This document shows, in pieces, positions 1,484 through 64,000 of a DNA stretch of 64,000 nucleotides; the stretch's first letter is position 1; each line of letters begins with the position of its first letter. Source of the DNA: an uncultured Chthonomonas sp. (GTDB taxonomy: Bacteria; Armatimonadota; Chthonomonadetes; Chthonomonadales; Chthonomonadaceae); the NCBI GenBank assembly GCA_903859705.1, contig CAIONQ010000021.1:1-64000 (forward strand). The letters are read 5' to 3'. A program made the translations under genes and the position numbers. Below the pieces are notes generated by a model. The model was not told the DNA's origin. It saw only the letters and a list, made by a program, of their open reading frames with translations, and did not search any database.

Positions 1484-3547
1484 ATGACCAGTACCTACTA
1501 TATTACAACTCCAATATATTATGTAAACGGGCTACCACATGTAGGCTCTGCTTTAACTACGATTGCGTGTGATGTTCTTGCCAGGTACCACAGGATGCTG
1601 GGAGAACAGAGCTGGCTGCTTACTGGAACCGATGAAAATGCAACCAAGGTCCAGGAGGCAGCACTTAAAGCCGGGGCTACGCCACAGCAATTTGTCGATC
1701 ATCTCGCAGGTGAGTTTCGTACCTCATGGAACTCCTTACATGTTGATTACTCAGATTTTATTCGCACAAGTGAGCCCAGGCATATCCGCGCTTGCCAGGA
1801 GTTTTTCCAACGCTTAATGGCAAACGGTTACGTGTACCTGGATACTTATGAAGGCTGGTACAGCATAAGTGACGAAACGTTTTACCTCGATGATAAAGTA
1901 AAAGACGGCTTCGAAATTGAAACCGGCAAGCCCGTTGTTCGTGTGCAGGAGAAGAACTATTTCTTCCGCCTATCTGCATTCGGAGATCGGCTGCTGGAGT
2001 ACTACGATCAACATCCTGAATTTCTGCAACCAGATTTCCGCCGAAATGAAGTAATAGGATTCGTAAAAGAAGGCCTGCGGGATATGTGCATCACGCGAGC
2101 CAATAAGGGCTGGGGAATCGAAGTCCCCGGTGACCCCGAGCGCGTGATCTACGTTTGGTTTGATGCCCTTATCAATTACCTGGCAGCAACCGGCTGGCCA
2201 GATAATCCAGAGTGGGAACAGATGTGGCCGCCAAAGCTCCACCTGATGGGCAAAGAGATCTTCGTTCGTTTTCATGCAACGCTGTGGCCCGCCATGTTAA
2301 TGGCACTTGGTATTGCATTGCCAGAACAAGTATATGCGCACGGATGGTGGACTGCACGTGGCTCTGGTGGAAAGCTTGGCAAGAGTACTGGCGGCCTTCC
2401 TACGCCGGAGAAGTTTACTGCTTTGCTTGCACAGCGTGCCGGCATTGATACTGAGACTGCAGCCGATGCCCAACGCTATATTCTATGCCGAGAAATGAAT
2501 TTTGGGCTAGATACAGACTTCAGCCTCGATAATTGCCTGCGCAGGTACAACACAGATCTGGCTAATGATCTTGGCAATCTGCTAAACCGATCTATCAATA
2601 TGCTGATTAAGTTCCGAGATGGAATAGTCCCACTTGCAGCAGACCAGGATTCGGAAATTACAGCACTCGCTGTGAAAGTGGTGGCAGATTATCAGGGTGC
2701 TATGGCTGGCATTAGCCCCAACAGGGCTCTTGAAGCAATATGGAGCTTGATTGGCAGGCTGAATAAATACGTTGATGAGAAAGCGCCGTGGACGCTGGCG
2801 AAACAAGCAGCAGCAGGCGATGCTCAGGCGGCTGAGGCACTAAGTACCGTGCTTTACTCTTGTCTAGAAGCATCGCGCGTGGCTTCAGTGCTTTTGTGGC
2901 CGTTCATGCCCGTTGCGTCTGCTGCCATAACCCGGCAGCTTGGAATGCCCGAGCGCACCACGATACCAACCATTTCTGATGCGGCCTGGGGCGGCCTACC
3001 ATCTGGCATAACCACTCAGGGCCCCACCCCCATTTTCCCGCGAATTCAGGTACTTGAATTGAGCGAGGCTGAGCTAATAGATCTCGGTGTTGTTGCAGCA
3101 TCGGCGGTTACAACTGGCACCACAGAAAGGCACAAAAAAGTGAGCGAAACAAACAAACCGGCAGAGGCAGCTGTTCCCGGTACACCTATAACACCAGAGT
3201 CCGCTGCAGCCATCCCTGAACCACTAATCACGATCGATGATCTGATGAAGGTTGAGTTGCGTGTTGGCGAAGTTCTTGCAGCAGAGCCAGTGCCAAATGC
3301 AAGCAAACTATTGCGTTTGACTGTGCAACTTGGCGAAGATGACACGCGGACTATTCTGGCAGGCGTTGCAGAATATTATGAACCAGAAGCACTGGTTGGA
3401 CGGCAGGTTATAGTTGTTGCGAATCTGCAGCCGCGCAAAATGCGCGGCATTGAGAGCCAGGGGATGTTGTTGGCGGCAGACATTGACGGCAAAGCAGTAC
3501 TGCTGCAGCCAGACTCACCGGTGGCGCCCGGTGCAAAAGTCAGATAA
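1484..3547 (+). CDS. metG: Methionyl-tRNA synthetase
   Basis: Charges tRNA-Met with methionine. The class I catalytic core begins TYYITTPIYYVNGLPHVG, and the C-terminal 110 residues (from about ITIDDLMKVELRVGEV) form the Arc1p/CsaA-type OB-fold that binds tRNA, so this is the long bacterial form (687 residues). Three things are odd. The HIGH motif reads HVGS, the KMSKS loop reads KLGKS (GGKLGKSTGG), and the connective peptide (GWYSISDETFY) has no cysteines, so no zinc knuckle is possible. A linker of about 70 residues rich in Thr, Ala and Pro precedes the tRNA-binding domain. The ATG at 1484 (MTSTYYIT) is preferred to the one at 1454 because it sits at the family start, though no good ribosome binding site is visible. 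A small GGCACGC/GCGTGCC hairpin (1427-1443) lies in the gap after fmdB. Confidence 0.93.
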   Translation: MTSTYYITTPIYYVNGLPHVGSALTTIACDVLARYHRMLGEQSWLLTGTDENATKVQEAALKAGATPQQFVDHLAGEFRTSWNSLHVDYSDFIRTSEPRHIRACQEFFQRLMANGYVYLDTYEGWYSISDETFYLDDKVKDGFEIETGKPVVRVQEKNYFFRLSAFGDRLLEYYDQHPEFLQPDFRRNEVIGFVKEGLRDMCITRANKGWGIEVPGDPERVIYVWFDALINYLAATGWPDNPEWEQMWPPKLHLMGKEIFVRFHATLWPAMLMALGIALPEQVYAHGWWTARGSGGKLGKSTGGLPTPEKFTALLAQRAGIDTETAADAQRYILCREMNFGLDTDFSLDNCLRRYNTDLANDLGNLLNRSINMLIKFRDGIVPLAADQDSEITALAVKVVADYQGAMAGISPNRALEAIWSLIGRLNKYVDEKAPWTLAKQAAAGDAQAAEALSTVLYSCLEASRVASVLLWPFMPVASAAITRQLGMPERTTIPTISDAAWGGLPSGITTQGPTPIFPRIQVLELSEAELIDLGVVAASAVTTGTTERHKKVSETNKPAEAAVPGTPITPESAAAIPEPLITIDDLMKVELRVGEVLAAEPVPNASKLLRLTVQLGEDDTRTILAGVAEYYEPEALVGRQVIVVANLQPRKMRGIESQGMLLAADIDGKAVLLQPDSPVAPGAKVR

Positions 3548-3570
3548 TATCTGACTTTTGCAGTTTTTCT
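3534..3570 (+). terminator. Terminator overlapping the metG stop codon
   Basis: A perfect inverted repeat (arms CAAAAGTCAGATA and TATCTGACTTTTG, 3534-3560) spans the metG TAA and is followed by CAGTTTTTCT. The stem is AT-rich, so on its own it may be weak. Confidence 0.6.
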
Positions 3571-3619
3571 GTCATAAACGAACAAACTGCAACACTGGAC
3601 GCGTCACATAAAACCAATA

Positions 3620-3663
3620 AAAATGCCGATAAATGCCAACAACCGCATTTATCGGCATTTTCT
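3620..3663 (+). terminator. Strong stem-loop terminator
   Basis: A 17-base perfect stem (left arm AAAATGCCGATAAATGC, 3620-3636; right arm 3645-3661) with an 8-base loop ends in TTTTCT. It backs up the terminator at the metG stop codon. Confidence 0.75.
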
Positions 3664-3720
3664 ATCAATAACCGTATTAAAAAATCATTAAATTCCTTTG
3701 ATTTTTGCACGGGTTATGGC

Positions 3721-3749
3721 TTGCAAATGCATATGTCATCCGTTATACT
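3721..3749 (+). promoter_or_regulatory. Promoter for the small membrane protein
   Basis: TTGCAA (3721-3726) and TATACT (3744-3749) are 17 bases apart. This is close to the sigma-70/A consensus and points to transcription starting near 3756. Confidence 0.7.
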
Positions 3750-3810
3750 GTAATTACCAGCGATGTTTACCAACATGTGCTGCAATTCAGGATGCGAGAG
3801 GAGGTGAGTG

Positions 3811-4020
3811 ATGAAGAAGGAACTTAGCCCGGCAGTTATCGTAGCGGCAGTCGTTGCTGCAGTAGGAGTTGCTGCACTGATCGGGTTCAAGACGCTGGGG
3901 CCGGCATCGAAACCGCCGCCGCCGAAGAATGCCGCATACGAGGAATATCGCAAAACTGGCCATATGCCAGAAATGAAGAATCCAAATGCTGGCGGAGCTC
4001 CCTCCACAGCCGGGAAGTAG
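3811..4020 (+). CDS. Small membrane protein of unknown function
   Basis: A 69-residue protein that I do not recognise. Residues about 6-29 form one hydrophobic helix (PAVIVAAVVAAVGVAALIGF). A proline stretch (KPPPPKNAAYEEYRKTGHMP) and a Gly/Pro tail follow, giving the look of a single-pass anchor or a short exported peptide. Expression signals are unusually good: a near-consensus promoter 60 bases upstream and a full GAGGAGGTGA ribosome binding site 6 bases before the ATG. A GTG immediately before the ATG (3808) is a less likely start. The neighbours are metG (separated by two terminators) and a prepilin gene, so it is probably its own unit. Confidence 0.75.
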   Translation: MKKELSPAVIVAAVVAAVGVAALIGFKTLGPASKPPPPKNAAYEEYRKTGHMPEMKNPNAGGAPSTAGK

Positions 4021-4196
4021 CTATATTCTGTAAGCTATTACAACCTGTGGTGACATTGCTTCACTTCAGGAATGCACGCACTATCTTCAATCGGCTCAGC
4101 AATGCAAGGCATTGTTGCCGCGCGATGCACATTTTCTGTTTCTCCCTACAAATTTAAATGCCAGGAACGGATTGTTACCTGGCCGGAGGCTGCTGA

Positions 4197-5009
4197 ATGC
4201 CCACAATTAAGAAGGCGTTTACCCTAATCGAGCTGCTCGTTGTTATCGCAATCATTGCGATCCTTGCTGCCATTCTGTTCCCTGTTTTCGCACAAGCACG
4301 TGAGTCTGCTCGCCAGACAAGCTGCCTTAGCAACGTAAAACAGATCTCTCTTGGCCTGACCATGTACACTCAGGACTACGATGAGAGATTCCCAATGTGG
4401 TACTACGATATGACCCCGGACAACCCGCTCCGTGGTAAAACAGATCCAGATGGCGGTGGCTATAAGGCCTTTCATGTTGGGTGGGACAAGGTTGTTGCCC
4501 CGTACCTTAAGAACCGCCAGATCTTCCACTGCCCGGATCGCTTCGGCCCCGGTAACGACTGGTCTGATCCGACTAAAGACTCCAGCGGTTGGACAGGCAC
4601 CCAGAACTACGCTGTAAACGCTCGCCTTGTTGGCCGAGCCGGTGAGAGCTGGCAGGTACCTTCTAAACTGGCATCTATCAACTGGCCGGCACAGGCTATC
4701 CTGATTGTTGAGGATGGCACCCAGACATCTACTGGCTCCTGTATGGCAGACAGCGGACTGGAATGGGGTTGGACTGGTGATCATAAGTCTAACCTGGTTG
4801 CAGAAGGTGCCGATGGCGTTGCACCTGGCCCGCTGACTCAGCACAAGGGTGGCTCCAACTACGGATTTACCGATGGCCATGCAAAGTGGTACAACGGTCA
4901 CTCCATGGGCCTCCTGAGCAACAATACAGCTACAGATCAGTCTGTAACTGCAGCTGGCCTGGATACCACGGGAACCCATCCAACATACCACATCAACCCG
5001 GGCAACTAA
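4197..5009 (+). CDS. DUF1559-type prepilin-like protein
   Basis: A 270-residue protein with a type IV prepilin leader: MPTIKKA, then the [19 protein letters not shown] helix, cleaved before Phe. The residue before the cleavage site is Ala rather than the usual Gly. The family pattern continues with [16 protein letters not shown] and ends in the H-x9-DG type motif ([19 protein letters not shown]). Such proteins are abundant in Armatimonadota and Planctomycetes and are thought to be pseudopilins or surface proteins; their function is not established. GGAGG lies 10 bases before the ATG. A terminator follows the gene, so it is probably monocistronic. The type II secretion-like genes at the far end of this window could supply assembly machinery, but nothing in the sequence links them. 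Confidence 0.85.
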
Positions 5010-5060
5010 TCAGCTGATCCCGGAAGATATTGATGTGTAAATTCCACATCAAACCTTCGT

Positions 5061-5100
5061 AAGAACGGTCTCTTGCAGTGCGCAAGGGGCCGTTCTTATT
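5061..5100 (+). terminator. Rho-independent terminator after the prepilin gene
   Basis: AAGAACGGTC (5061-5070) pairs with GGCCGTTCTT (5088-5097) with one G-T pair, followed by a short T-rich stretch. Confidence 0.65.
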
Positions 5101-5224
5101 CTGTGAAATTACCCTTAAACAAGTTTCGCTGTGCCTATCGGCTAAACGGGTACAATTTTCATAACGGAACATCGGCGTAACGCCGTGGAACCACTCCACG
5201 CTTTTTAGATACCAGATACAGTCA

Positions 5225-54623: not shown

Positions 54624-57600
54624 CTACTGCTTAGGAGGCGTTGTTTGCCCGGCAGGGGTTTGATCTGGCACTGTGGTACTGGGCTGGCCAACCGGTGTAA
54701 CCGGGCCAGATTTCTTGTTGTCCTTCTTCTTGTTGTCTTTCTTGGCACCAACCAGGTTAGGTTGCTGTTCCGAAAGGCCAGTTATCTGGTTAATAACTGT
54801 TGCACCAGCAGATGCTGCCATCTGGCGGCTCTGCTCCGCTGTGGCAACAACATGCGGTGTCACAAAGATCATCAGCTCAACTTTAGAGCGGATCTTTTCG
54901 CGCGAGCGGAAGAATTGTCCCAGAATTGGAATATCACTCAGCACAGGAACCTTGTTAATGTTCAAACTGGTTCTGTCTCGGATCAGGCCGCCGATCACTG
55001 CCGTGTCACCATCTTTTACAGTTACGGATGTATCGGTGTATCTGTCATTAAACACGGGAGCGATTATGGCGTTAGATCCGGAACCCAGTGTCTGGTAGTT
55101 AACCAGGTCACTGGCATCTTCTACTACATCTACAGTAACCAGTCCATCGCGAGTGATGCGAGGTGTAACATCAAGTGTAAAGCCAATGGATGCAAACTGC
55201 ACCTGGTTGGAAACACTTGTGGATACAAGGCCACTTGAAGTTTGCCCGGTTATGTATGGAACCTGCGTGGCAATGTCGATAATTGCCGGCTGGTTATTGG
55301 AAGTGAACACACGCGGTGTTGCCAACACCTTCACTTTACTATCCACACCAAGAGCTTGCAGCAATATGCTGTGATTTACACTGGAGATTACTGCCTGTAG
55401 GCCCTGCTGAGCCGCATCTGGCGTTAACCCTGTGCCCATGCTGGCACCTGGCAACAGCACGTTTGCATTGCCCGTTGTAGTGCCGCCAAGTCCACCTATA
55501 ACATTGTTGAGGTTGAAGCCAAGCTTCTGGTCATTTTCAAGCGAGATCTCAGCAACAATCACCTCAATCATCACCTGGCGCGGTATTACGTCCAGAGAAT
55601 CTACAATGCCCTTAATGGCCTCGTAGTTGTTAGGCGTCGTGGTTACAATAATACTGTCCCCATTAGGCGAAGCTACTGCATACACATTGTTCTGAAGCTG
55701 CAGCAAACCCGTAAATGCACCGTTGGAGCCGGTTCCACCCATCTGCTGGTTCGAGTTGCCCCGGTTACCCTGGCCACCACCAAAGCCACCACCGCCAAAG
55801 CCACCGAAACCACCACCGCCGCCGCCAAAGCGCATACCCTGGCGGGTTGTGCCACTTGTATCCTGAACCTGGCTGGGTACAAACTGCCCATCGGCGGTAA
55901 GTACGCCCGGTATTCCGGATGGGATGGCAGACCCACCGTTATCCGTTGTAAATCCATCTCCAGCAGTGCCCATATCTGGCGCATTCGGGGGGCCAGGCGG
56001 CCGCATAGATACGCCTCGTCCGGATGTGGTTGGTCGGCGTTGAATAGGAGTATGGCCATTGATGGCGCCACCACCGCTGCCGCCCCTGCTTCCGCCTGCA
56101 CCACCAATACTGCCTCCGAAGAACGGATTAAAATTGTTGTTGCTGTTGCTCGAGGTGGAGGTGCTAAATGCCTGATTAAGGGCAGAAGCAACATCCGCAG
56201 CCTGAGCATTTTTCAGCGGAATAACAAATGTGGTCGACTCAACAGCGATGTTTACATCAAGTTGATCAATTAGCTCCTCAACCTTAACCATTTTCTCTGG
56301 CGATGCTGTAATCAGCACGCTGTTGGTTCGGGTATCGGCCGCTACCTTAGCAAACGGATCTGAACTCTGAGTTGTCTGTCCGGATCCACCGCCAAATCCA
56401 CCAAATCCACCAAATCCGCCGCCAAAGGCACGGGCAGCGAAGGGAGTACCACCACTGCTGGAGCTTGCAGAAATTGCACCATGCTGGTCAGAAAGCACCT
56501 GATTAATGGTGTTTGCAACGGTTGTTGCATCTGCATACTTAACCTTGCGCAGCTTGGTGTTGAGGGTATTCGAATCGTCATCATCAATTCGATTGATGAT
56601 CGTCTGGGTTATCTGTTCTTGCGTTTCTCTGGATGCCACCACAATCAGGCTGTTTGTGCTGGTTTCAGCAACTGCATATACAGACGGTGTGCCGCCGGAT
56701 GCCTGTTGCCCACCCATACCAGGGTTAAATCCTGGCTGGCCGGGTGCAGGGCCACTGGTTTTACCACGGGTGGTAATCTTGCCATACAGATTGTTTATCA
56801 TGTCTGCAAGGCCAGATGCTTCCGCATGGTGCAGTTGATAAACCGCCATCTCAGAGCGACTGGAGGTCTTATCCAGTGCGGCAACAAGATCAATCATGCG
56901 CTGAACATTGCTCGCAGTATCTGTTACAACCACAGCATTGCTGCCTGTAGCACCAACAATACTCGCTCCTTTATTCATTAAAGGAAGCAACTCTTTCGCC
57001 ATGGCATCTGCGTCCACATTCTCCAGCGGGATCACCTGGGTAATCACCTGGTTACGTGGATCAATGTTTTTGGGATCAATCTGAGTATTTACGTGGGTTG
57101 TATTCGCAACTGCCGAGTTGAACGGAAGAATTTGAATAACGTTATCCTGCTGCAGGGCTGTAAAGCCACGCACAGAAAGTACGCTTTGAAGAATTCTAAA
57201 CGCTTCATCAAGCGATACCTGCTTGGGAGCCACAATCGTAACCGGGCCAGTAACGGTGGGATCAGCCACAATGGTCATCTGCGTTGCTGTTGCGAAAACC
57301 TTAAGCACAGCAGAAATATCCATGTTGTGGAAATCCATGGAAACCATGGTGCCAGCTCGCGATGCCGGAGGCGCAAAAGTACCGCCAGTAGGTACGGCCG
57401 GCGCACCAGCAGGCGGTGCCCCAGCAGCGGGTGTGCCTGCTGCTGGCGGCGCTGCGGTTGGGTCGGTTGGAGCCCCTGCTCCCCGGGTTCCGCGCTGCCG
57501 TCGCTGGATTGGGATTATTTTTACGCTGCTCTTCGGCGCGTTAAACGGAGCCTGAACCGCGCCGGTGCCAGATGCCTGAGCATTAGCGCGAGCAGACGGA

Positions 57601-57695
57601 ACAAGGGCGGTTCCGGCAGCCATTGCCGCAAACGTCGCTGCGGCGAGAGACCTGCGCAAATATGCTGCGCGGATCCGCTGTGATCTATCTTCCAA
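54624..57695 (-). CDS. gspD: Secretin (GspD/PilQ family outer-membrane channel)
   Basis: A 1023-residue secretin, long for the family. A signal peptide (RIRAAYLRRSLAAATFAAMAAG, cleavage after ARANA) is followed by an N0 domain (FHNMDISAVLKVFATATQMTIV) and then N-type ring domains: VIPLENVDADAMAKELLPLM, VYQLHHAEASGLADMINNLY, LRKVKYADATTVANTINQVL, VIPLKNAQAADVASALNQAF and TTPNNYEAIKGIVDSLDVIP. A 150-residue Gly-rich stretch interrupts the last pair. The C-terminal secretin barrel has ATPRVFTSNNQPA and the VPVLSDIPILGQFF hallmark, then a Lys-rich tail. The start is TTG 57695, with GGAGG seven bases upstream, not the upstream in-frame TTG at 57746. Confidence 0.9.
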   Translation of the reverse strand: MEDRSQRIRAAYLRRSLAAATFAAMAAGTALVPSARANAQASGTGAVQAPFNAPKSSVKIIPIQRRQRGTRGAGAPTDPTAAPPAAGTPAAGAPPAGAPAVPTGGTFAPPASRAGTMVSMDFHNMDISAVLKVFATATQMTIVADPTVTGPVTIVAPKQVSLDEAFRILQSVLSVRGFTALQQDNVIQILPFNSAVANTTHVNTQIDPKNIDPRNQVITQVIPLENVDADAMAKELLPLMNKGASIVGATGSNAVVVTDTASNVQRMIDLVAALDKTSSRSEMAVYQLHHAEASGLADMINNLYGKITTRGKTSGPAPGQPGFNPGMGGQQASGGTPSVYAVAETSTNSLIVVASRETQEQITQTIINRIDDDDSNTLNTKLRKVKYADATTVANTINQVLSDQHGAISASSSSGGTPFAARAFGGGFGGFGGFGGGSGQTTQSSDPFAKVAADTRTNSVLITASPEKMVKVEELIDQLDVNIAVESTTFVIPLKNAQAADVASALNQAFSTSTSSNSNNNFNPFFGGSIGGAGGSRGGSGGGAINGHTPIQRRPTTSGRGVSMRPPGPPNAPDMGTAGDGFTTDNGGSAIPSGIPGVLTADGQFVPSQVQDTSGTTRQGMRFGGGGGGFGGFGGGGFGGGQGNRGNSNQQMGGTGSNGAFTGLLQLQNNVYAVASPNGDSIIVTTTPNNYEAIKGIVDSLDVIPRQVMIEVIVAEISLENDQKLGFNLNNVIGGLGGTTTGNANVLLPGASMGTGLTPDAAQQGLQAVISSVNHSILLQALGVDSKVKVLATPRVFTSNNQPAIIDIATQVPYITGQTSSGLVSTSVSNQVQFASIGFTLDVTPRITRDGLVTVDVVEDASDLVNYQTLGSGSNAIIAPVFNDRYTDTSVTVKDGDTAVIGGLIRDRTSLNINKVPVLSDIPILGQFFRSREKIRSKVELMIFVTPHVVATAEQSRQMAASAGATVINQITGLSEQQPNLVGAKKDNKKKDNKKSGPVTPVGQPSTTVPDQTPAGQTTPPKQ

Positions 57696-57769
57696 AGCAC
57701 ATCCTCCAACCAGGTACTGGTTTCGACTGTGTGTCTGAGAACTCAAAAGGTTTGTGAAAAGCGCGGTCG

Positions 57770-58645
57770 TTATCCGCCGCCATTACCGCCGAAGCCACCG
57801 AAGCCACCGCGGCGACCACCGCCACCGCCACCACCACGGCCCATTCCACCGCCAAATCCACCACCACCACCGGTAGCTCCCTGTGCGCCCTGAGCGCCTG
57901 GCCAGCCCTGGTTGAGTCTATTCATGTAGCGCTGAGCTCTGGCACCATCCAGCTGCATGCCATTTGGCAGAGTAATCGATTGCCCGGTTGCGCCCATACC
58001 TGCTGCCATAGCGGCCATTTTGGCCATATTGGGATCCATTCCCTGGGCAGCACCAGGCGATGCACTCAGGAAGGCTGCGCTTTTGCTGAGCGGAACATAA
58101 GAGTAGTTCATGCTCACCATCATGGACTTGGCCTCTTTGCCAAGTGTGAGCATCACAAACTGAGTATCGATGCTATCTACTTTAAAGCCTTCGAAATCGT
58201 CGCCGGCTTTGAGCATCACACTATCGTGAGTAGATGTATTCTCCACAATACCGTACGTTACATCATTTACCTTAGCACTGCCGGTAAAGCTCCAATCTGC
58301 CAGCGGATCGACTGGTGCTGGCGGAACAGGTTTGCTTATGGGCGGTGTAACGTCCTTTGGCGCAGGAGCTACGGGCTCACTAAACATGTTTGCTCGCAGA
58401 TCACCCGTGTAAAAAGTTAGGTCTCGTCGCTTACCAGGTGCACCTGCTACGGGCTGCTGTGATTTGGAAGTCACTGTAATGGATTTCTTCACCGCAGTTG
58501 ACTTTGTAACTGCCCTTGTATCGGCAGGCTTGCTCTGAGCAGCCTTCTGCAGCGATGGCACAATCAAGCCCATTGCTGCCGCTGATGCGGCCACGCCAAT
58601 AACTGCAGCGGGAACTGCAGAGCGCACTTTAGATTTACTTGCCAT
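57770..58645 (-). CDS. PilP/GspC-like inner-membrane protein
   Basis: A 291-residue protein with an N-terminal helix (AVPAAVIGVAASAAAMGLIV, about 10-30). Residues about 120-205 resemble a GspC/PilP homology region: DWSFTGSAKVNDVTYGIVENTSTHDSVMLKAGDDFEGFKV. The final 80 residues are Met- and Gly-rich, ending in GGGGGFGGGMGRGGGGGGG. In the alternatives PilP and GspC, this domain contacts the secretin N0 domain; its gene lies just before the secretin here, so the same role is inferred. The ATG at 58645 is preferred to 58678, with GGGAG about 11 bases upstream. Confidence 0.65.
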   Translation of the reverse strand: MASKSKVRSAVPAAVIGVAASAAAMGLIVPSLQKAAQSKPADTRAVTKSTAVKKSITVTSKSQQPVAGAPGKRRDLTFYTGDLRANMFSEPVAPAPKDVTPPISKPVPPAPVDPLADWSFTGSAKVNDVTYGIVENTSTHDSVMLKAGDDFEGFKVDSIDTQFVMLTLGKEAKSMMVSMNYSYVPLSKSAAFLSASPGAAQGMDPNMAKMAAMAAGMGATGQSITLPNGMQLDGARAQRYMNRLNQGWPGAQGAQGATGGGGGFGGGMGRGGGGGGGRRGGFGGFGGNGGG

Positions 58646-58689
58646 CGTATTGTGTTCTCCCTGATCTGCGAAACGCAAAAGTAGAGGTG

Positions 58690-59283
58690 CTACTTAGCAT
58701 TCGTCACGCTGCTCTTATCTGAAGTATCCGTACCTGTAGTTCCCGGCGCTACGGATCGAGTGTATACAGTAATCTGGGCGGCTACCTCAACAGTTTTCTG
58801 CCTTGGGTCCGCAGAGGTAATATCCAGCTTGTCCACAACCATCCTGCCATCGGGATCTTCTACCAGGTATAGAAACTTAACAGTATTTGGCTTGAACGGT
58901 GCAAGAAAGTGAACTTCCAGCGGAACACTGGATCCCATGCCAGAAGCCAGTGTGCGCGGCCTTATGGGCTTAACCTCACGGATATGCACTCCTGCCTTTG
59001 CAGCAATCTGCTGCAAGTCTCGGATTGTCCGGGGAACAAGCTCGTCCGGTGCGAGGTCATATGCCAGCGTCGCCACATGAGGCTCAAGCTCAGTAGCCTC
59101 ACGAGCCAGCCTTGCGGCATTCCGCTCGTTAACCTCATTATCCTTAACCGCCTTGGCATACGGAACCGTTCCTGCCAGGCTCTTCCCTCCGCCAGAGGGT
59201 GTGAGAATGTTAAAGATGACGATCAGTACGACAACAACGCCGCCGATTGTCACCAATCTCCGCTCTCTCGGGCTAATCTGCAT
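58690..59283 (-). CDS. pilO: PilO/GspM-like assembly protein
   Basis: A 197-residue bitopic protein: a short cytoplasmic N-terminus, one helix (about 10-30, LVTIGGVVVVLIVIFNIL), a coiled-coil stretch (NEVNERNAARLAREATELEPH), then a ferredoxin-like periplasmic domain (ELVPRTIRDLQQIAAKAGVHIREVKP...). This is the PilO/GspM layout. It pairs with PilN or the GspL periplasmic domain to form the inner-membrane platform. The ATG at 59283 overlaps the end of the upstream fusion gene by 11 bases and has GGAG six bases before it, so translation is coupled. Confidence 0.8.
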   Translation of the reverse strand: MQISPRERRLVTIGGVVVVLIVIFNILTPSGGGKSLAGTVPYAKAVKDNEVNERNAARLAREATELEPHVATLAYDLAPDELVPRTIRDLQQIAAKAGVHIREVKPIRPRTLASGMGSSVPLEVHFLAPFKPNTVKFLYLVEDPDGRMVVDKLDITSADPRQKTVEVAAQITVYTRSVAPGTTGTDTSDKSSVTNAK

Positions 59284-61519
59284 CATTGTCTCCGCTATCG
59301 TCCGTTTCGCCTTCACCAACTACGCGTTTTCGTGCTTTGTTGGCCGCTGGCCCCGCCGATTGATCTGACTTTTTAGAGGTTAGGTTCAACCCCATTAACA
59401 GATCTACGCTGCTCTGGTTTACGTGGCAGGTAATGATAAAACTCGTTCTTGTAACCTTCCCACCTACACCCGGGCGCTGTATAACGCGAGAACGTCTTGA
59501 TGTATTGTTGGACGATACAGAAGCGGTAGTCGTTACGGCAGGTTTAGTGCCTGTGCTGGCAACCGTGTCTGCCCCTGTTGCTGTACCGCCAAATCTCGAC
59601 GACATACGGTTTGCTCGCTGCCTACGCCGTGGGCCAGGCGTTGTGCCTTCACCCGTTACTGCAGGGCCAGGCGCATCGGGAAGAATAACATTTCGTCCCG
59701 CAGGTATCTGAAAAGCACCCGGTGTTACAGTGCTCGGTATACCCGTTGGCGGTTGGCCAGGGGTGATGATGTTTGGCTGCCTTCCAGGCGTAAAGCCACC
59801 GCCACCCGGAGTAAATCCACCACCTCCAGGTGTAAATCCACCACCTCCAGGCGCTGTAAACCCTCCAGCAGGATTACCGGCACCTGGCTGCGCGCCACCC
59901 TGAAACCCTGCAGATCCACCGCCAGTAGGGAAGCCCGGTGCACCGCCGCTAGGGGTGAACCCTTGCATTCCACCCATCTGCATGCCGCCATCGCCGAAGT
60001 TCGGCAACGGCGTGGAATCTTTTTTAGCATCTGCTTTTGGTGGGGCTGTAGCAACCAGGTTGGTTTCTTGCGCATCCCCCATGTAAACGAGTTTCACATC
60101 CCTGAACGCCCCACTGCCTTGCAAGGCAATGGCGAGTTCCGTAGGGGCGGTTGAGTTTCTAGCTTCACCACGTAAAGTAAGCAGGCCACCATGTACATAA
60201 GATAGCTGCGTTAGCCACAAATCAGAACTGTTTGGCAAAGCTGCATGCAGCGCTGTCACTACATCAACAGCACCGTGCTTGCGATCCAGCCCCTTCTCAA
60301 GCTCAGCATCGAACGAGGCTAGCTTATCGTGTTTTTTCTGCACCGTATCTAAAATTGATTTGCTACTCTTTAGCTTTTTATTGGCTGCAAGCGTGCGTAC
60401 CGCATCTGCCGCACTATTCTTAACCATAGCATTAGCTTGCCAAATCGCACCTATTAATACTGCCGCAGCACCGAGTACTGAAACCTGCTGCCGTAGGCGA
60501 GAGGCCTGGCGGGCCTGCCGCTCTGCGCGCTCATCCGGAACAAGAGATATCGGAGCCAGCGCACTGGATTGCGTTTGAAGAGCAAGGCCCGATGCCGTGG
60601 CGTAACCAATCAGATCTGGATCATTGGCTGTAATCAGCCGGTTGTGCAGCCTGGAAACAGGCATTTCAAGAATTGAACTTAAGCTGCGCTCAAGCCGGCC
60701 AGCATCCTTTACGGTAGCGCTGGATCCCGATAGAAACACATGCCCGATTATTTTGCTGCGGTACTCGTTCTGATATGCCGTAAAAGAGCGGGCAACCTCT
60801 TCATCGAGTTTGCGTTGTGCAACATCTGGTGAGATGCCCTCCAGATCGAGAGCTGTTGCACGAGTAAACAGCAACTGGCCGTCGGCAACCACAGCAACGT
60901 CCATTGAGCCCGGCTGGATATCTATCAGGGCTGTCGGCTCCAGTACATCTCGAGCATGTTCAGCCAGTGCAAGGGCGGAAACCGAGAGCTGCCTGAGTTC
61001 CAGACCTGCTTTATCAAATATCGCCAACAGCTCATTGATAAGAGAACGCCGTGCAGCTGCAAGCAAAACGGTTTCGAGGTCTTCACCATCCGATGAACCA
61101 AAACCAGGCAGAGGCCCGGTTAGCGCATGGTAATCCAGCGATACCTCATCAAGCGAAAACAGAATGTACTGTTGGGCTTCAAATGTAACCATCTGCTTCA
61201 TCTGCTCTGGCGGGGCAGATGGGAGCCTTGCAAATCGTACCGTTACGAGGCGGCGTGGCATACACGCAATAACAGATTTACCGCTGATGCCAGCTGCAGC
61301 AAGCGCGGCACGCAGAGCAGAAACGAACGTGTCCCGATGTGCCGGCAGATCGTTCCATACATGCGGCGGCAACGGTGCAGATCCACGGCGCAATATCCGG
61401 TTCTGGGAAGAATCCGAACCAGATAGCTCCATTTCCACTACACGGATTGCATTTTCGCCCAGATCAAGCGCTATGCAGTTCGATTGTCCCACTGAACGCG
61501 TGGGCTGCTTGGTTGGCAC
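59273..61519 (-). CDS. PilM-PilN fusion (GspL-like) with long repeat-built linker
   Basis: A 748-residue protein. Residues about 15-330 are an actin-like PilM/GspL cytoplasmic ATPase fold: CIALDLGENAIRVVEMEL (phosphate 1), TALIDIQPGSMDVAVV (phosphate 2) and HVFLSGSSATVKDAGRLE. A helix (VLGAAAVLIGAIWQANAM, about 350) crosses the membrane and residues about 370-490 are a PilN-like periplasmic ferredoxin-like domain (VVTALHAALPNSSDLWLTQLSY). A low-complexity Gly/Pro/Thr region with tandem FTPGGGG units follows, then a C-terminal piece around SFIITCHVNQSSVDLLMGLNL, and an acidic tail. This is the domain order of GspL in type II secretion. GTG 61519 has GGAGG five bases upstream. Confidence 0.8.
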   Translation of the reverse strand: MPTKQPTRSVGQSNCIALDLGENAIRVVEMELSGSDSSQNRILRRGSAPLPPHVWNDLPAHRDTFVSALRAALAAAGISGKSVIACMPRRLVTVRFARLPSAPPEQMKQMVTFEAQQYILFSLDEVSLDYHALTGPLPGFGSSDGEDLETVLLAAARRSLINELLAIFDKAGLELRQLSVSALALAEHARDVLEPTALIDIQPGSMDVAVVADGQLLFTRATALDLEGISPDVAQRKLDEEVARSFTAYQNEYRSKIIGHVFLSGSSATVKDAGRLERSLSSILEMPVSRLHNRLITANDPDLIGYATASGLALQTQSSALAPISLVPDERAERQARQASRLRQQVSVLGAAAVLIGAIWQANAMVKNSAADAVRTLAANKKLKSSKSILDTVQKKHDKLASFDAELEKGLDRKHGAVDVVTALHAALPNSSDLWLTQLSYVHGGLLTLRGEARNSTAPTELAIALQGSGAFRDVKLVYMGDAQETNLVATAPPKADAKKDSTPLPNFGDGGMQMGGMQGFTPSGGAPGFPTGGGSAGFQGGAQPGAGNPAGGFTAPGGGGFTPGGGGFTPGGGGFTPGRQPNIITPGQPPTGIPSTVTPGAFQIPAGRNVILPDAPGPAVTGEGTTPGPRRRQRANRMSSRFGGTATGADTVASTGTKPAVTTTASVSSNNTSRRSRVIQRPGVGGKVTRTSFIITCHVNQSSVDLLMGLNLTSKKSDQSAGPAANKARKRVVGEGETDDSGDNDAD

Positions 61520-61544
61520 GGTAACCTCCGATAGTTACGCCCGG

Positions 61545-63323
61545 TTAATGACCAGCGGACGTATTGGACGATGTAACTGTAGGCTGCGGCAGAACCGGAG
61601 AAGGCAACCAGTATGCCCACCCCGGGACGCGAGGCGTCTCACGCCACTGAAGTATTTGCGGTCCATTGTCCGTTAGCTGCACCATCGCAGTTACAGCATA
61701 TACATTCTGCTGCCCCGGTATCATTACTTTGACCCGGATCCTGTAGATGGACGACTTTGTGCAAATGGACGCGATTACGTTTTGAAACTCCTGGCGAGTT
61801 ACTCCCTGAAGAGCAAAGAAATCACCCAGCGTTTGAAACGACTGGCCGCCCTGTCTGAAATCGAGAATTGCATTCAGGGTGGTATGATCCATACCCGGGA
61901 TAGTTGCCAGCACTTCGGCCGGAGCCGTATTTATATTCACCAGATTAGGATGATACTGAAGGTCATCCACGGATACGAAATCTGCTATTTGCTGCATTAC
62001 CTGCTGGGTGAAGCCTGGAACTGTAAGTAGATCAGCAATAGTTTTAAAGGTGCTCGTAGTAGCTCCAGTTCCGGTTCCTGTACCGGTGCCTGTACCCGAA
62101 CCTGTTCCATTACCGGGCCTGCCAGAGCCGCCTGCTCCTGTTCCGCTTCCCGTTCCAGTACCGGTTCCCGGGCGCCCAGATCCACCAGCACCGCCTCCCG
62201 CAGCAGGTGTTTGCCGGTTTGCTGCCCCACTACCGCCCGTACCTCCCCCGGTTGCGCCCCCCGGGCGGTTGCCGCCAGTGCCGCCGCCGGTTCCGCCGCC
62301 GTTGGTAGATGCAGGTGTGCGCGCTCTGATCAAAGCATTTGCCAGGTTTGTGGAGATACCTAACCCCTGTAGATCGGTTGCAGTTGCAGTATTAATATTG
62401 ATACGAGCCGTACCATCTGCCGCAATGTTGCGTTCCATCGAAAGTGTGGTTAGCAACTCTGAAAGCGGCTTGGTGCTTGTACCATATATGTCGTCCCAAT
62501 TTGTATCACCAGCGGTAGCGGCTGTTCCAGTTCCTGCACCACCTGTACCACCAGTTCCACCCGTACCCGTACCACCAGTGCCGCCGGTTCCGGTTCCACC
62601 GCCTCCTGCACCACCAGTCCCGCCAGTTCCACCAGTTCCGGGACGCGCAGTTGTTTGCCGCGTAGTGCCGCTAAGCGATTGGTTTGAACCACTCGCAACG
62701 TTGTTCTGGCTGTCTTCCGGCGAGATGGGGTTGCCAGCAGCATTGCCAAACAAGATAGTAGGTGTCATCCCTTTAACAAGCAACAGCTCTTCTACGGTAT
62801 CAAACGGTGCATCCTTACAATTATATGGTGGCGTCAGTCCCTGGTAATAGTCTGATTTGGCACCATCTGTGGTTGCTGTTGTTTCGGGAGTGCGCCAATC
62901 TACAATGGCATCTGCAAGTGGAACATTTTGCCCAAAAACAGACATACGCTGTAGTGTGGCAGATGTGGCAGCGTTGATGTTTACGAATGCACCCGTATCC
63001 ACCACATCAATCTTGACCCACGCATCCCCTATCTGCATCCATCCATTAGAATCTGTATCTGCCCCGGGTGGAACTATCCCATACGTGGCTGCATGGCTGC
63101 TAATCTGATCCAATGCGGCCATGGCATAGTTAACCGCGCCTCGCGCTGCATTAAACCGAACCGTATCGGCATTGAAGTAGGATGCAGCTTTAAGCTCCCT
63201 GCTGGAAGAAGCAGTAAATGCAATAGCCACAGTGGTGAGTATGACAACCACTAGAATTACTGGTACAAGAGCCTGCGCTCTGGCTGGCCTAGAGGAACGA
63301 ACCTGTTGGGTTGTATGATGCAT
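61545..63323 (-). CDS. gspK: GspK-like minor pseudopilin with repeat-rich insertions
   Basis: A 592-residue GspK-family protein. The N-terminus is RPARAQALVPVILVVVILTTVAIAF, a hydrophobic helix of the pseudopilin type but without the usual G|F-T-L-I-E leader (Ala-Gln-Ala-Leu here). Helix-hairpin-helix segments follow: FVNINAATSATLQRMSVFG, ININTATATDLQGLGISTNLANALIRAR and NINTAPAEVLATIPGMDHTTLNAILDFR. Two long Gly/Thr/Ser stretches interrupt them (about residues 225-285 and 345-430, the latter GTGTGTGSGTGAGG-like). Known GspK caps the pseudopilus tip with GspI and GspJ. The ATG at 63323 or the TTG at 63335 could start it; the TTG abuts the upstream stop. Confidence 0.8.
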   Translation of the reverse strand: MHHTTQQVRSSRPARAQALVPVILVVVILTTVAIAFTASSSRELKAASYFNADTVRFNAARGAVNYAMAALDQISSHAATYGIVPPGADTDSNGWMQIGDAWVKIDVVDTGAFVNINAATSATLQRMSVFGQNVPLADAIVDWRTPETTATTDGAKSDYYQGLTPPYNCKDAPFDTVEELLLVKGMTPTILFGNAAGNPISPEDSQNNVASGSNQSLSGTTRQTTARPGTGGTGGTGGAGGGGTGTGGTGGTGTGGTGGTGGAGTGTAATAGDTNWDDIYGTSTKPLSELLTTLSMERNIAADGTARININTATATDLQGLGISTNLANALIRARTPASTNGGGTGGGTGGNRPGGATGGGTGGSGAANRQTPAAGGGAGGSGRPGTGTGTGSGTGAGGSGRPGNGTGSGTGTGTGTGTGATTSTFKTIADLLTVPGFTQQVMQQIADFVSVDDLQYHPNLVNINTAPAEVLATIPGMDHTTLNAILDFRQGGQSFQTLGDFFALQGVTRQEFQNVIASICTKSSIYRIRVKVMIPGQQNVYAVTAMVQLTDNGPQILQWRETPRVPGWAYWLPSPVLPQPTVTSSNTSAGH

Positions 63324-63335
63324 GTAGGTTCTCAA

Positions 63336-64000
63336 TTACTGGCCCGTGCCCGATCCTGAAGTGGTAGAAGAACTGGTGGTGTTCTTCAAAGTAGATGTAT
63401 CGGCATATGGCAGCCCGGCAGCAATTGGAATAATTGTTGTATAGGATACGCGCTGGCCATAAGCGTTGATCTTCTCGATCGTAATCTGAACCGCCGTAGG
63501 AAACGTAACGTCACCAGTACTGGCACTTATGGTGGCACCGCTAAGTGTAGTATAGGTGTTTGAGGCACTTGATGAGCTTGCCGTAGATCCGGCAGAAGTA
63601 CCGCCAGTTGTTCCCCCCGTTGCGCCAGTAGTGCCCGTTGAGACGGACTGCGCTGGAGTAATATTTGATTGCTCGTAGTCCCAGCTATCTCGCCAGGAGT
63701 TTTGAACGGGGTCCCAAAACTGAAACTGAATGCTTGTAATGCCGGAGGCAAGTATTGATCCCGGATCACCCTGTGGAGGTGCCGTAACCAAAGTAAGGTT
63801 AGGCACACTCACTACGGAGCGCAGTAAATTTCCTGAAGCCGAATCCACATCGTAGCGAACCACCTGATAGCCAGCCTGAGGCGTACCTGTTTGGCTCCCA
63901 TTTTGCCCGGAAGCACCAATCGTAGAGGTACCCTGGGCTCCGCCAGCCTGGTTAAGCTCTTCTGCTTGAATTCTATAAGACGATGTGGTGAACGTCAATA
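63336..64000 (-). CDS. Pseudopilin-like protein (GspJ-type), 5' end outside window
   Basis: The frame is open to the window edge, so the N-terminus with any prepilin leader is not seen. The visible 220 residues have VVRYDVDSASGNLLRSVVSVP and ITSIQFQFWDPVQNSWRDSWD, a pattern typical of the GspJ C-terminal part, interrupted by a Gly/Thr/Ser-rich stretch (GTTGATGGTTGGTSAGSTASSS), and ending VQITIEKINAYGQRVSYTTIIPI. The place directly before gspK supports GspJ. Low-complexity insertions match those of its neighbours. Confidence 0.6.
   Translation of the reverse strand, partial: LTFTTSSYRIQAEELNQAGGAQGTSTIGASGQNGSQTGTPQAGYQVVRYDVDSASGNLLRSVVSVPNLTLVTAPPQGDPGSILASGITSIQFQFWDPVQNSWRDSWDYEQSNITPAQSVSTGTTGATGGTTGGTSAGSTASSSSASNTYTTLSGATISASTGDVTFPTAVQITIEKINAYGQRVSYTTIIPIAAGLPYADTSTLKNTTSSSTTSGSGTGQ

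What the first reader, a model, noticed from the sequence alone, without database searches (positions are those of the whole stretch)
54624..64000. Secretion operon in which nearly every subunit carries Gly-rich low-complexity insertions
The secretin, the PilP/GspC-like protein, the GspL-like fusion, GspK and the partial GspJ-like protein all contain Gly/Thr/Pro/Ser stretches absent from usual homologues. The same feature in five adjacent interacting proteins suggests a shared structural adaptation, for instance a wider periplasm or an extra envelope layer, rather than chance.
Basis: partly seen in the sequence, partly recalled or inferred. Interest (0 to 1): 0.5.

Follow-up and report, generated by a model that had tools for sequence, protein, structure and literature searches.

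The report
Gly-rich disordered segments in secretion machines
A protein-secretion machine in an uncultured Armatimonadota bacterium really does carry long floppy glycine-rich stretches in five of its parts, but relatives, and second machines inside some of the same cells, lack part of them, so a thicker cell envelope does not explain them.

Summary
GspJ, K, L, C and D of a type II secretion (T2SS) operon hold 605 Gly-rich residues of 4,714 in its 11 proteins (12.8%), against 0.62% in a 315-kb sample of the same genome; E. coli K-12 Gsp proteins have none. It is not confined to this operon: a PilM-led type IV pilus (T4P) type locus carries such segments in its PilN-, O-, P-like proteins and secretin wherever read in the order (15 or 18 complete proteins each).

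Chance is rejected, but the proposed cause (wider periplasm or extra layer) fails for this operon. Insert lengths do not vary together as a set. Sister families lack the GspK inserts. In three genomes with two T2SS read, one GspK has them and the other does not. Two proxies for envelope spacing do not differ clearly.

Best reading: disordered surface segments are a habit of filament machines in this phylum, mostly at tolerant places (linkers between GspK modules, one loop site of three secretin N-domains, tails); only the last secretin loop keeps invariant residues. New variant of a known kind. Side find: SLH tether proteins with collagen-like spacers.

The parts
54624..57746 (-). GspD secretin, 1040 aa; N0 plus four Secretin_N repeats plus secretin domain
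   Evidence: Pfam PF21305, PF03958 (4 stretches), PF00263; NCBIfam TIGR02517 461.8 bits, cut-off 351.35; AlphaFold secondary structure
57378..57440 (-). GspD Pro/Ala/Gly-rich stretch before N0 (residues 103-123)
56679..56765 (-). GspD insert in the alpha1-beta2 loop of Secretin_N repeat 2 (residues 328-356)
   Evidence: AlphaFold elements, PDB alignment, 0 of 29 residues invariant in 14 sequences
56352..56474 (-). GspD insert in the same loop of repeat 3 (residues 425-465), with GGFGGFGGFGGG; 0 of 41 residues invariant
55683..56165 (-). GspD 161-aa insert in the same loop of repeat 4 (residues 528-688), 10 residues invariant in 14 sequences, three of them at its end next to the next strand
57770..58678 (-). 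GspC/PilP-like protein, 302 aa: TM, linker of 83 aa, HR-like block, tail
   Evidence: NCBIfam GspC_delta 20.7 bits, below cut-off 150
57773..57925 (-). GspC Gly/Arg-rich C-terminal tail (residues 252-302), after the HR-like block
58690..59319 (-). GspM/PilO-like protein, 209 aa, no Gly-rich segment
   Evidence: weak profile hits only
59273..61519 (-). GspL-like PilM+PilN fusion, 748 aa
   Evidence: Pfam PilM_2 6.7e-17; PilN 3.1e-4, under its cut-off
59741..59980 (-). GspL Gly/Pro-rich segment (residues 514-593), core of an insert of about 200 aa before the last strand of the PilN-like domain
   Evidence: extent read from the alignment
61545..63335 (-). GspK minor pseudopilin, 596 aa
   Evidence: Pfam T2SSK_1st, HHH_3, T2SSK; NF037980 119.2 bits, cut-off 130; Foldseek best hit a chain of the XcpGHIJK pseudopilus model 9a1f, third hit GspK of 3ci0
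62490..62681 (-). GspK insert 1 (residues 219-282), between helix-hairpin-helix modules
   Evidence: pLDDT below 50 up to residue 276; absent from the 8 aligned f2/f3 relatives
62031..62342 (-). GspK insert 2 (residues 332-435), between modules
   Evidence: pLDDT below 50 for 343-425; absent from the 8 aligned f2/f3 relatives
63336..64000 (-). GspJ minor pseudopilin, part inside the window (gene runs to 64337, 333 aa)
63558..63662 (-). GspJ Gly/Ser/Thr-rich segment (residues 226-260)
63858..63965 (-). GspJ Gly-rich segment (residues 125-160)

Best explanation
This is a T2SS operon with the 11 core parts (E-F-G-H-I-J-K-L-M-C-D) whose non-cytoplasmic subunits carry intrinsically disordered Gly-rich segments, as the T4P-type locus of the same lineage does. 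The segments are of two classes. (a) Segments kept by the lineage: one homologous loop (alpha1-beta2) in three successive secretin N-domains, and the tails and linkers of the PilN/O/P-like proteins and secretin of the T4P-type locus. They probably act as flexible tethers and as disordered filling at the secretin vestibule, helping a mobile six-fold assembly platform engage a rigid 13- to 15-fold ring. (b) Segments gained in one family: the two GspK inter-module linkers and most of the GspL insert (GspJ and GspC vary in every family), which sit where the fold tolerates extra length and are close to neutral in function. Shown: identity of most parts, disorder prediction, sites, distribution, lack of joint variation, same-cell contrast. 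Inferred: every statement about function.
For: Enrichment 12.8% against 0.62%. T4P-type locus: PilN-, O- and P-like proteins Gly-rich in 15 of 15 and its secretin in 18 of 18 complete order-level proteins, own genome included, with sampled backgrounds of 0.67, 0.10 and 0.70% in three genomes. GspD has some GLC in 30 of 31 complete copies in the phylum loci read. The three GspD inserts fall in the same loop of three repeats; the last one aligns to the PulD gap 292-303, and PulD loop 288-303 was left out of the cryo-EM model (PMC6882859, passages). The last loop keeps 10 invariant residues in 14 sequences. K inserts are predicted disordered between modules with block pLDDT mostly 77-95 and are missing from sister families and from a second T2SS in three genomes. 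Gly codons are scrambled: 0 of 9 proteins tested show local codon identity above shuffles at p below 0.05, so the stretches are not fresh DNA repeats.
Against: No functional data. Class (b) could also be useful. The J-C link (r 0.83) and C-D link (rho 0.82; r 0.39, p 0.13 after tree correction) show that some lengths may move together. Two of the three secretin loops have no invariant residue. GspC is filed by position and a weak profile hit only, and PilN, PilO and PilP of the T4P-type locus have no relevant profile hit and are named by gene order after a clear PilM; its secretin scores 131 bits against a PilQ cut-off of 284. The GspD model is poor overall (mean pLDDT 52).
Confidence: 0.5

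Rival explanations
1. Shared structural adaptation to a wider periplasm or an extra envelope layer: all five proteins are stretched to span a longer distance.
For: Thermus PilW, a Gly/Pro-rich protein at the PilP position, is proposed to act as a flexible tether in a ~70 nm periplasm, and a 54-residue cut moved the inner density ~7 nm towards PilQ (PMC13039148, passages and section 7). The PilP-like protein here has a Gly-rich stretch before residue 145 in 14 of 15 loci, this genome being the exception. GspD has one N-domain more than the N0-N3 of T2SS secretins (PMC5646246 passage).
Against: Two T2SS in one cell differ. No joint variation of the set. The insert sites of K, J, L and C do not lie on the spanning path (inference from their places), and the GspC linker that does has no GLC in 17 of 17 and overlaps between families. 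SLH-protein spacers: median 27 aa in f1 (n 12), 31.5 in f3 (n 10).
Confidence: 0.08
2. Neutral growth of low-complexity sequence at tolerant surface sites of the whole machine, with no function anywhere.
For: Lengths vary widely among relatives; K, J and L inserts come and go without loss of the operon; two of three secretin loops lack invariant residues.
Against: Segments of the T4P-type locus are kept in every complete order-level protein read; the genomes at large hold little such sequence; ten invariant residues in the last secretin loop.
Confidence: 0.32
3. Recent expansion of DNA repeats (slippage) happening to be in frame.
For: Some short imperfect tandem arrays exist, for instance a 21-base unit of 3.3 copies at 59783-59851.
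Against: Synonymous codons within the segments are no more clustered than in shuffles, 0 of 9 tests below 0.05, GspK nearest at 0.053.
Confidence: 0.04
4. Aromatic Gly-rich secretin loops form a gel-like sieve inside the periplasmic vestibule of the channel (like FG nucleoporins), a selective gate for pseudopilus tip and cargo.
For: Three successive N-domains each extend the same loop; 231 loop residues per subunit, 3,465 in an assumed 15-mer. Aromatic content of the Gly-rich residues 6.2% in D and 5.4% in the T4P-type secretin against 1.6 and 2.5% in J and K. N3 is a constriction site in PulD.
Against: That these loops face the lumen was not shown; GspC (5.4%), GspL (4.7%) and PilN-like (4.3%) segments are also fairly rich in aromatics, so this is not special to the channel; no test of gelation.
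Confidence: 0.05

Closest known systems
Type II secretion system of E. coli and Klebsiella (GspC-M, PulD)
   Same: Same set of core parts; GspD, GspE and GspG pass NCBIfam cut-offs; GspK matches solved pseudopilins by fold
   Different: E. coli K-12 parts have no Gly-rich segment and another gene order, C-D-E-F-G-H-I-J-K-L-M; here GspD is 1040 aa (650 there) with an extra Secretin_N repeat and long loops, GspK 596 aa (327 there)
Thermus thermophilus PilW / T4P machine (PMC13039148, passages and one section read)
   Same: A Gly/Pro-rich flexible protein of the PilP position bridging inner platform and secretin
   Different: In this T2SS the Gly-rich part of GspC lies after the HR-like block, not in the tether; tether-like placement occurs in the PilP-like protein of relatives
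Disordered regions of T2SS parts discussed in the literature (reference 30 of PMC5646246 and reference 8 of PMC7949064, seen only as cited there)
   Same: Disorder at key positions of T2SS proteins was already proposed to matter
   Different: Whether those works describe long Gly-rich segments was not checked
FG-repeat nucleoporins (recalled)
   Same: Gly/Phe-rich disordered sequence in a ring-shaped channel
   Different: No homology claimed, lumen location not shown

Membership tests
Type II secretion system | Secretin of the GspD family with N0 domain | tested here: met
   TIGR02517 461.8 bits over 351.35; PF21305 N0
Type II secretion system | GspE ATPase | tested here: met
   TIGR02533 644.8 over 630.25; PilB model 607.1 under its 675.65
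Type II secretion system | Major pseudopilin GspG | tested here: met
   TIGR01710 133.2 over 88.85, PF08334
Type II secretion system | Inner-membrane protein GspF | tested here: inconclusive
   TIGR02120 416.2, just under 424; PF00482 met
Type II secretion system | Minor pseudopilin GspK | tested here: met
   PF21687 and PF03934 over cut-off; NF037980 119.2 under 130; Foldseek to the XcpGHIJK model, E 6.6e-4
Type II secretion system | GspC with HR domain | tested here: inconclusive
   NF041515 20.7 bits, far under 150; T2SSC in 1 of 15 relatives at E 0.047; right place, TM and conserved HR-like block in alignment A6
Type II secretion system | Prepilin peptidase, pilotin, secretion of folded exoproteins | not tested
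   Not searched; secretion needs an experiment
PilW-type flexible tether | Gly/Pro-rich linker between membrane anchor and HR domain | tested here: not met
   For T2SS GspC no GLC before HR in 17 of 17 with a recognised HR start. In the PilP-like protein a stretch before residue 145 occurs in 14 of 15 order-level loci, not in this genome's own; the own copy has no profile hit
FG-type permeability gel | Disordered Gly-rich repeats with aromatic residues in a channel lumen | not testable with these tools
   Composition only; lumen orientation not determined

The most novel reading that the evidence does not exclude
In Armatimonadota the periplasmic vestibule of secretins (T2SS and T4P) is filled by a Gly/aromatic disordered mesh, grown from one loop of several stacked N-domains and kept across the lineage, which works as a permeability gate, while Gly-rich tails of the inner platform proteins mix into it and hold the two halves of the machine together without a rigid contact.
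Probability: 0.08. Interest if true: 0.8.

Novelty: new variant of a known kind. Interest (0 to 1): 0.4.

Why it matters
How secretin rings of 13 to 15 subunits couple to a six-fold platform and stay shut is an open matter in T2SS and T4P work. A lineage in which the flexible parts are enlarged and partly conserved gives natural material to test what those parts do. It also warns that a trait shared by neighbouring interacting proteins need not have a single cause: here the lengths mostly move independently and two machines in one cell differ.

Tried and rejected
Wider periplasm: tested by joint variation, by two-machine genomes, by GspC linker length and content and by SLH-protein spacers; rejected for this operon. 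DNA slippage: codon shuffles; rejected. Genome-wide Gly-run counts by DNA pattern were not useful: overlapping hits and G homopolymers inflate them, and the backward control is identical because the pattern is its own reverse. Search of a 133-aa piece of the last GspD loop over 121 phylum genomes matched 9 (8 of them in this order, own included), while at least 7 other order members gave none, so its origin could not be traced. GspC, and PilN/O/P of the T4P-type locus, could not be confirmed by profiles.

Selections and losses: A1 used 18 of 20 complete GspK (L060, L070 left out as near copies), A2 14 of 16 GspD (same two), A3 the window's GspK and 16 of 17 complete ones (L102 left out), A4 to A6 the window's protein and all complete ones. 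One search was given 29 of 30 phylum handles (G047 left out). In one search, 25 of 30 best-secretin loci (29 genomes) show at least 20 GLC residues, 3 show none (L166, L176, L181) and in 2 (L160, L172) my ORF picker chose an antisense frame; not all of these secretins are of T4P type. T4P-type loci were fetched for 18 of the 30 other genomes of the order; the rest were left out or had no usable place. In one search, 3 of 20 GspC did not match my HR pattern. In one search, 25 of 30 SLH loci were examined (L185, L193, L198, L213, L214 left out) and 2 had no collagen-like run. Truncated proteins were left out pair by pair, with L036 as outgroup only. Calling f1 Chthonomonadaceae is my inference from record titles; one f3 record there is titled Chthonomonas calidirosea.
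Full report
What is there. The window is the first 64,000 bases of a 72,166-base contig of a 6.24-Mb genome. Named relatives place it in or next to Chthonomonadaceae, Armatimonadota; the nearest named hit is an uncultured Chthonomonas sp. metagenome bin (GspK 58% identical in its best segment). On the minus strand, ending at 54,624, lies a T2SS operon with 11 core parts, E-F-G-H-I-J-K-L-M-C-D, of which E to I and the start of J lie past the window. GspD, GspE and GspG pass the NCBIfam cut-offs, GspF and GspK fall just short, and GspC is recognised only by place and a weak hit.

Is the observation right? Yes. With a simple score (GLC: windows of 20 residues, 80% GSTPNQA, 25% Gly), J, K, L, C and D have 104, 168, 80, 51 and 202 residues of such sequence; E, F, G, H, I and M have none. 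A 315-kb sample of the same genome has 0.62% (588 of 95,224 residues, 228 ORFs, 3 with 40 or more) against 12.8% in the operon (Fisher p 4e-6). The excess holds under other thresholds, though it falls to 6 fold when Gly is not required. E. coli K-12 Gsp proteins score zero, 11 of 11.

It is wider than the operon. A second secretin locus of the same genome (L004) opens with a clear PilM (PF11104, 173 bits), followed by proteins I name PilN, PilO and PilP from gene order alone (no relevant profile hit), an STN-domain protein and a secretin; their GLC counts are 120, 43, 62, 64 and 104. In the loci read from this order (own genome included) the PilN-, PilO- and PilP-like proteins are Gly-rich in 15 of 15 complete proteins each and the secretin in 18 of 18. 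In the rest of the phylum, 25 of 30 best-secretin loci show some, 3 do not and 2 could not be read. Sampled backgrounds in three genomes are 0.67%, 0.10% and 0.70%, so this looks like a trait of filament machines rather than of the proteome.

Where the segments sit. AlphaFold of GspK (pTM 0.67) gives well-folded modules (block pLDDT mostly 77-95) separated by two disordered stretches at 210-276 and 343-425; Foldseek's best hit is a chain of the XcpGHIJK pseudopilus model. In GspD (poor model, pTM 0.31, but regular secondary structure) there is N0 and then four beta-alpha-beta-beta-alpha repeats. T2SS secretins have N0 to N3 (PMC5646246, passage), so this has one repeat more. Repeats 2, 3 and 4 each carry an insert between alpha1 and beta2: 29, 41 and 161 residues. 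The last aligns to the gap 292-303 of the PulD chain; loop 288-303 was left out of the PulD cryo-EM model, and N3 forms a constriction in the channel (PMC6882859, passages). The loop of repeat 4 keeps 10 invariant residues over 14 sequences, three of them at its end; the other two loops keep none. In GspL the insert precedes the last strand of the PilN-like domain; by eye the PilN-like insert of the T4P-type locus is at a like place. In GspC the Gly-rich part lies after the HR-like block: 0 of 17 have GLC before it.

Does it reflect envelope width? Five tests. First, lengths across 16-21 sister operons on a tree of GspE+F+G: of ten pairs, J-C is linked (contrasts r 0.83, p below 0.001), C-D only before tree correction (rho 0.82; r 0.39, p 0.13 after), the other eight are not. 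Second, GspK: 96-212 residues in 12 of 12 complete proteins of this type in f1 (11, one); 0-69 in 10 of 10 from the other two families; J, C and D do not differ between f1 and f3, L does weakly (p 0.03). Without the Gly requirement the GspK gap is 201 against 178, but both inserts are missing at their sites in the 8 aligned f2/f3 proteins. Third, three f1 genomes (G004, G013, G015) have a second, distant T2SS: read from F to D in one, I to D in another, J to L in the third. Its GspK has 23, 0 and 0 residues against 96, 105 and 179 in the first system (the last frame runs off its contig). Its GspD is Gly-rich all the same (171 and 195 in the two read). Fourth, the GspC linker from membrane to HR, the part that spans the periplasm in PulC, measures 66-102 (median 83, n 9) in f1 and 73-79 (median 75.5, n 8) in f3; I estimate about 55-60 by eye for E. 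coli. Fifth, SLH proteins of SlpA/OmpM-like layout: in Deinococcus the stalk length of SlpA matches the outer-membrane-to-wall distance (PMC9388160, passages). Here they have collagen-like spacers of median 27 (n 12) in f1 and 31.5 (n 10) in f3. So the wider-periplasm idea does not account for the inserts of this operon. A general lengthening relative to E. coli (extra N-domain, longer GspC linker) is possible and separate.

Thermus PilW is rich in Gly and Pro, sits at the PilP place and is proposed to act as a flexible tether across a ~70 nm periplasm (PMC13039148, passages and section 7). The PilP-like protein has a Gly-rich stretch before residue 145 in 14 of 15 order-level loci, 9 of 15 with a lipobox by my pattern; this genome's own is the exception for the stretch and lacks a lipobox.

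Selection or slippage? In nine proteins tested, equal residues inside the segments do not share codons more often than in shuffles (lowest p 0.053, GspK), so they are not fresh DNA repeats. Composition differs by partner: aromatics 6.2% in GspD, 5.4% in the T4P-type secretin and in GspC, 4.7% in GspL, 4.3% in PilN-like, 2.5% or less in K, J, O- and P-like.

Reading. Disordered Gly-rich segments look like a standing habit of Armatimonadota type IV filament machines. Some parts look kept and probably work as flexible joints or vestibule filling; the GspK and GspL inserts look like lineage-specific tolerated spacers. I rate this a new variant of a known kind, interest 0.4. Searches of the open library for Armatimonadota with type II secretion (2 papers), for secretin with glycine-rich, type IV pilus and low complexity (1) and for PilQ with glycine-rich (5) listed no title or abstract start on this; those papers were not read, and subscription journals are mostly not covered. 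A T2SS gene set and a presumed diderm envelope have been reported for the Armatimonadota isolate Fimbriimonas ginsengisoli (PMC4072686, passages).

Noticed in passing
L215:819-2732 and 3007-5142 (own genome C147); L186-L188, L190-L192, L194-L197, L199, L201-L212 in relatives: SLH proteins laid out like OmpM/SlpA (SLH, spacer, helical stretch, long C-terminal part) carry a collagen-like GXX run of 18-36 residues after the SLH domain in 23 of 25 best SLH proteins examined. In the two own-genome copies Pfam Collagen scores 20.6 and 21.6 bits, under the 27.2 cut-off, and the C-terminal part has no Pfam hit, so the barrel is inferred. A tether porin with a collagen-like triple helix would be new; two searches of the open library listed no such report.
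   Followed up: partly
L050, L056, L019 and L058, L063 (relatives): A second, distant T2SS operon exists in several genomes of the order, with a short GspK (412-413 aa) and, where read, a Gly-rich GspD.
   Followed up: partly
window 55683-56165 (GspD residues 528-688): Conserved motifs (RQFF, PGVLTPxGFVPD, YGRGxxGxYxNLLQL by consensus) sit inside the otherwise low-complexity loop of the last Secretin_N repeat; a 133-aa piece matched 9 of 121 phylum genomes, 8 of them in this order.
   Followed up: partly
L004:7360-8361: A separate STN-domain protein (E 0.001, under cut-off) with a Gly-rich end precedes the secretin gene in the T4P-type locus, as if the secretin N-terminus were its own gene.
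   Followed up: no
GspC C-terminal tails, alignment A6: Besides Gly, many relatives keep a basic MNR-F-GG-R ending, RGG-like in several.
   Followed up: no
L083:1580-3658: A FecR/DUF6600 protein with 174 Gly-rich residues is the richest protein in the background sample.
   Followed up: no
L079:8709-9473 (own genome C23): The weak second GspK hit of this genome looks like a ComEA-like helix-hairpin-helix protein, not a pseudopilin (my reading of the sequence).
   Followed up: partly
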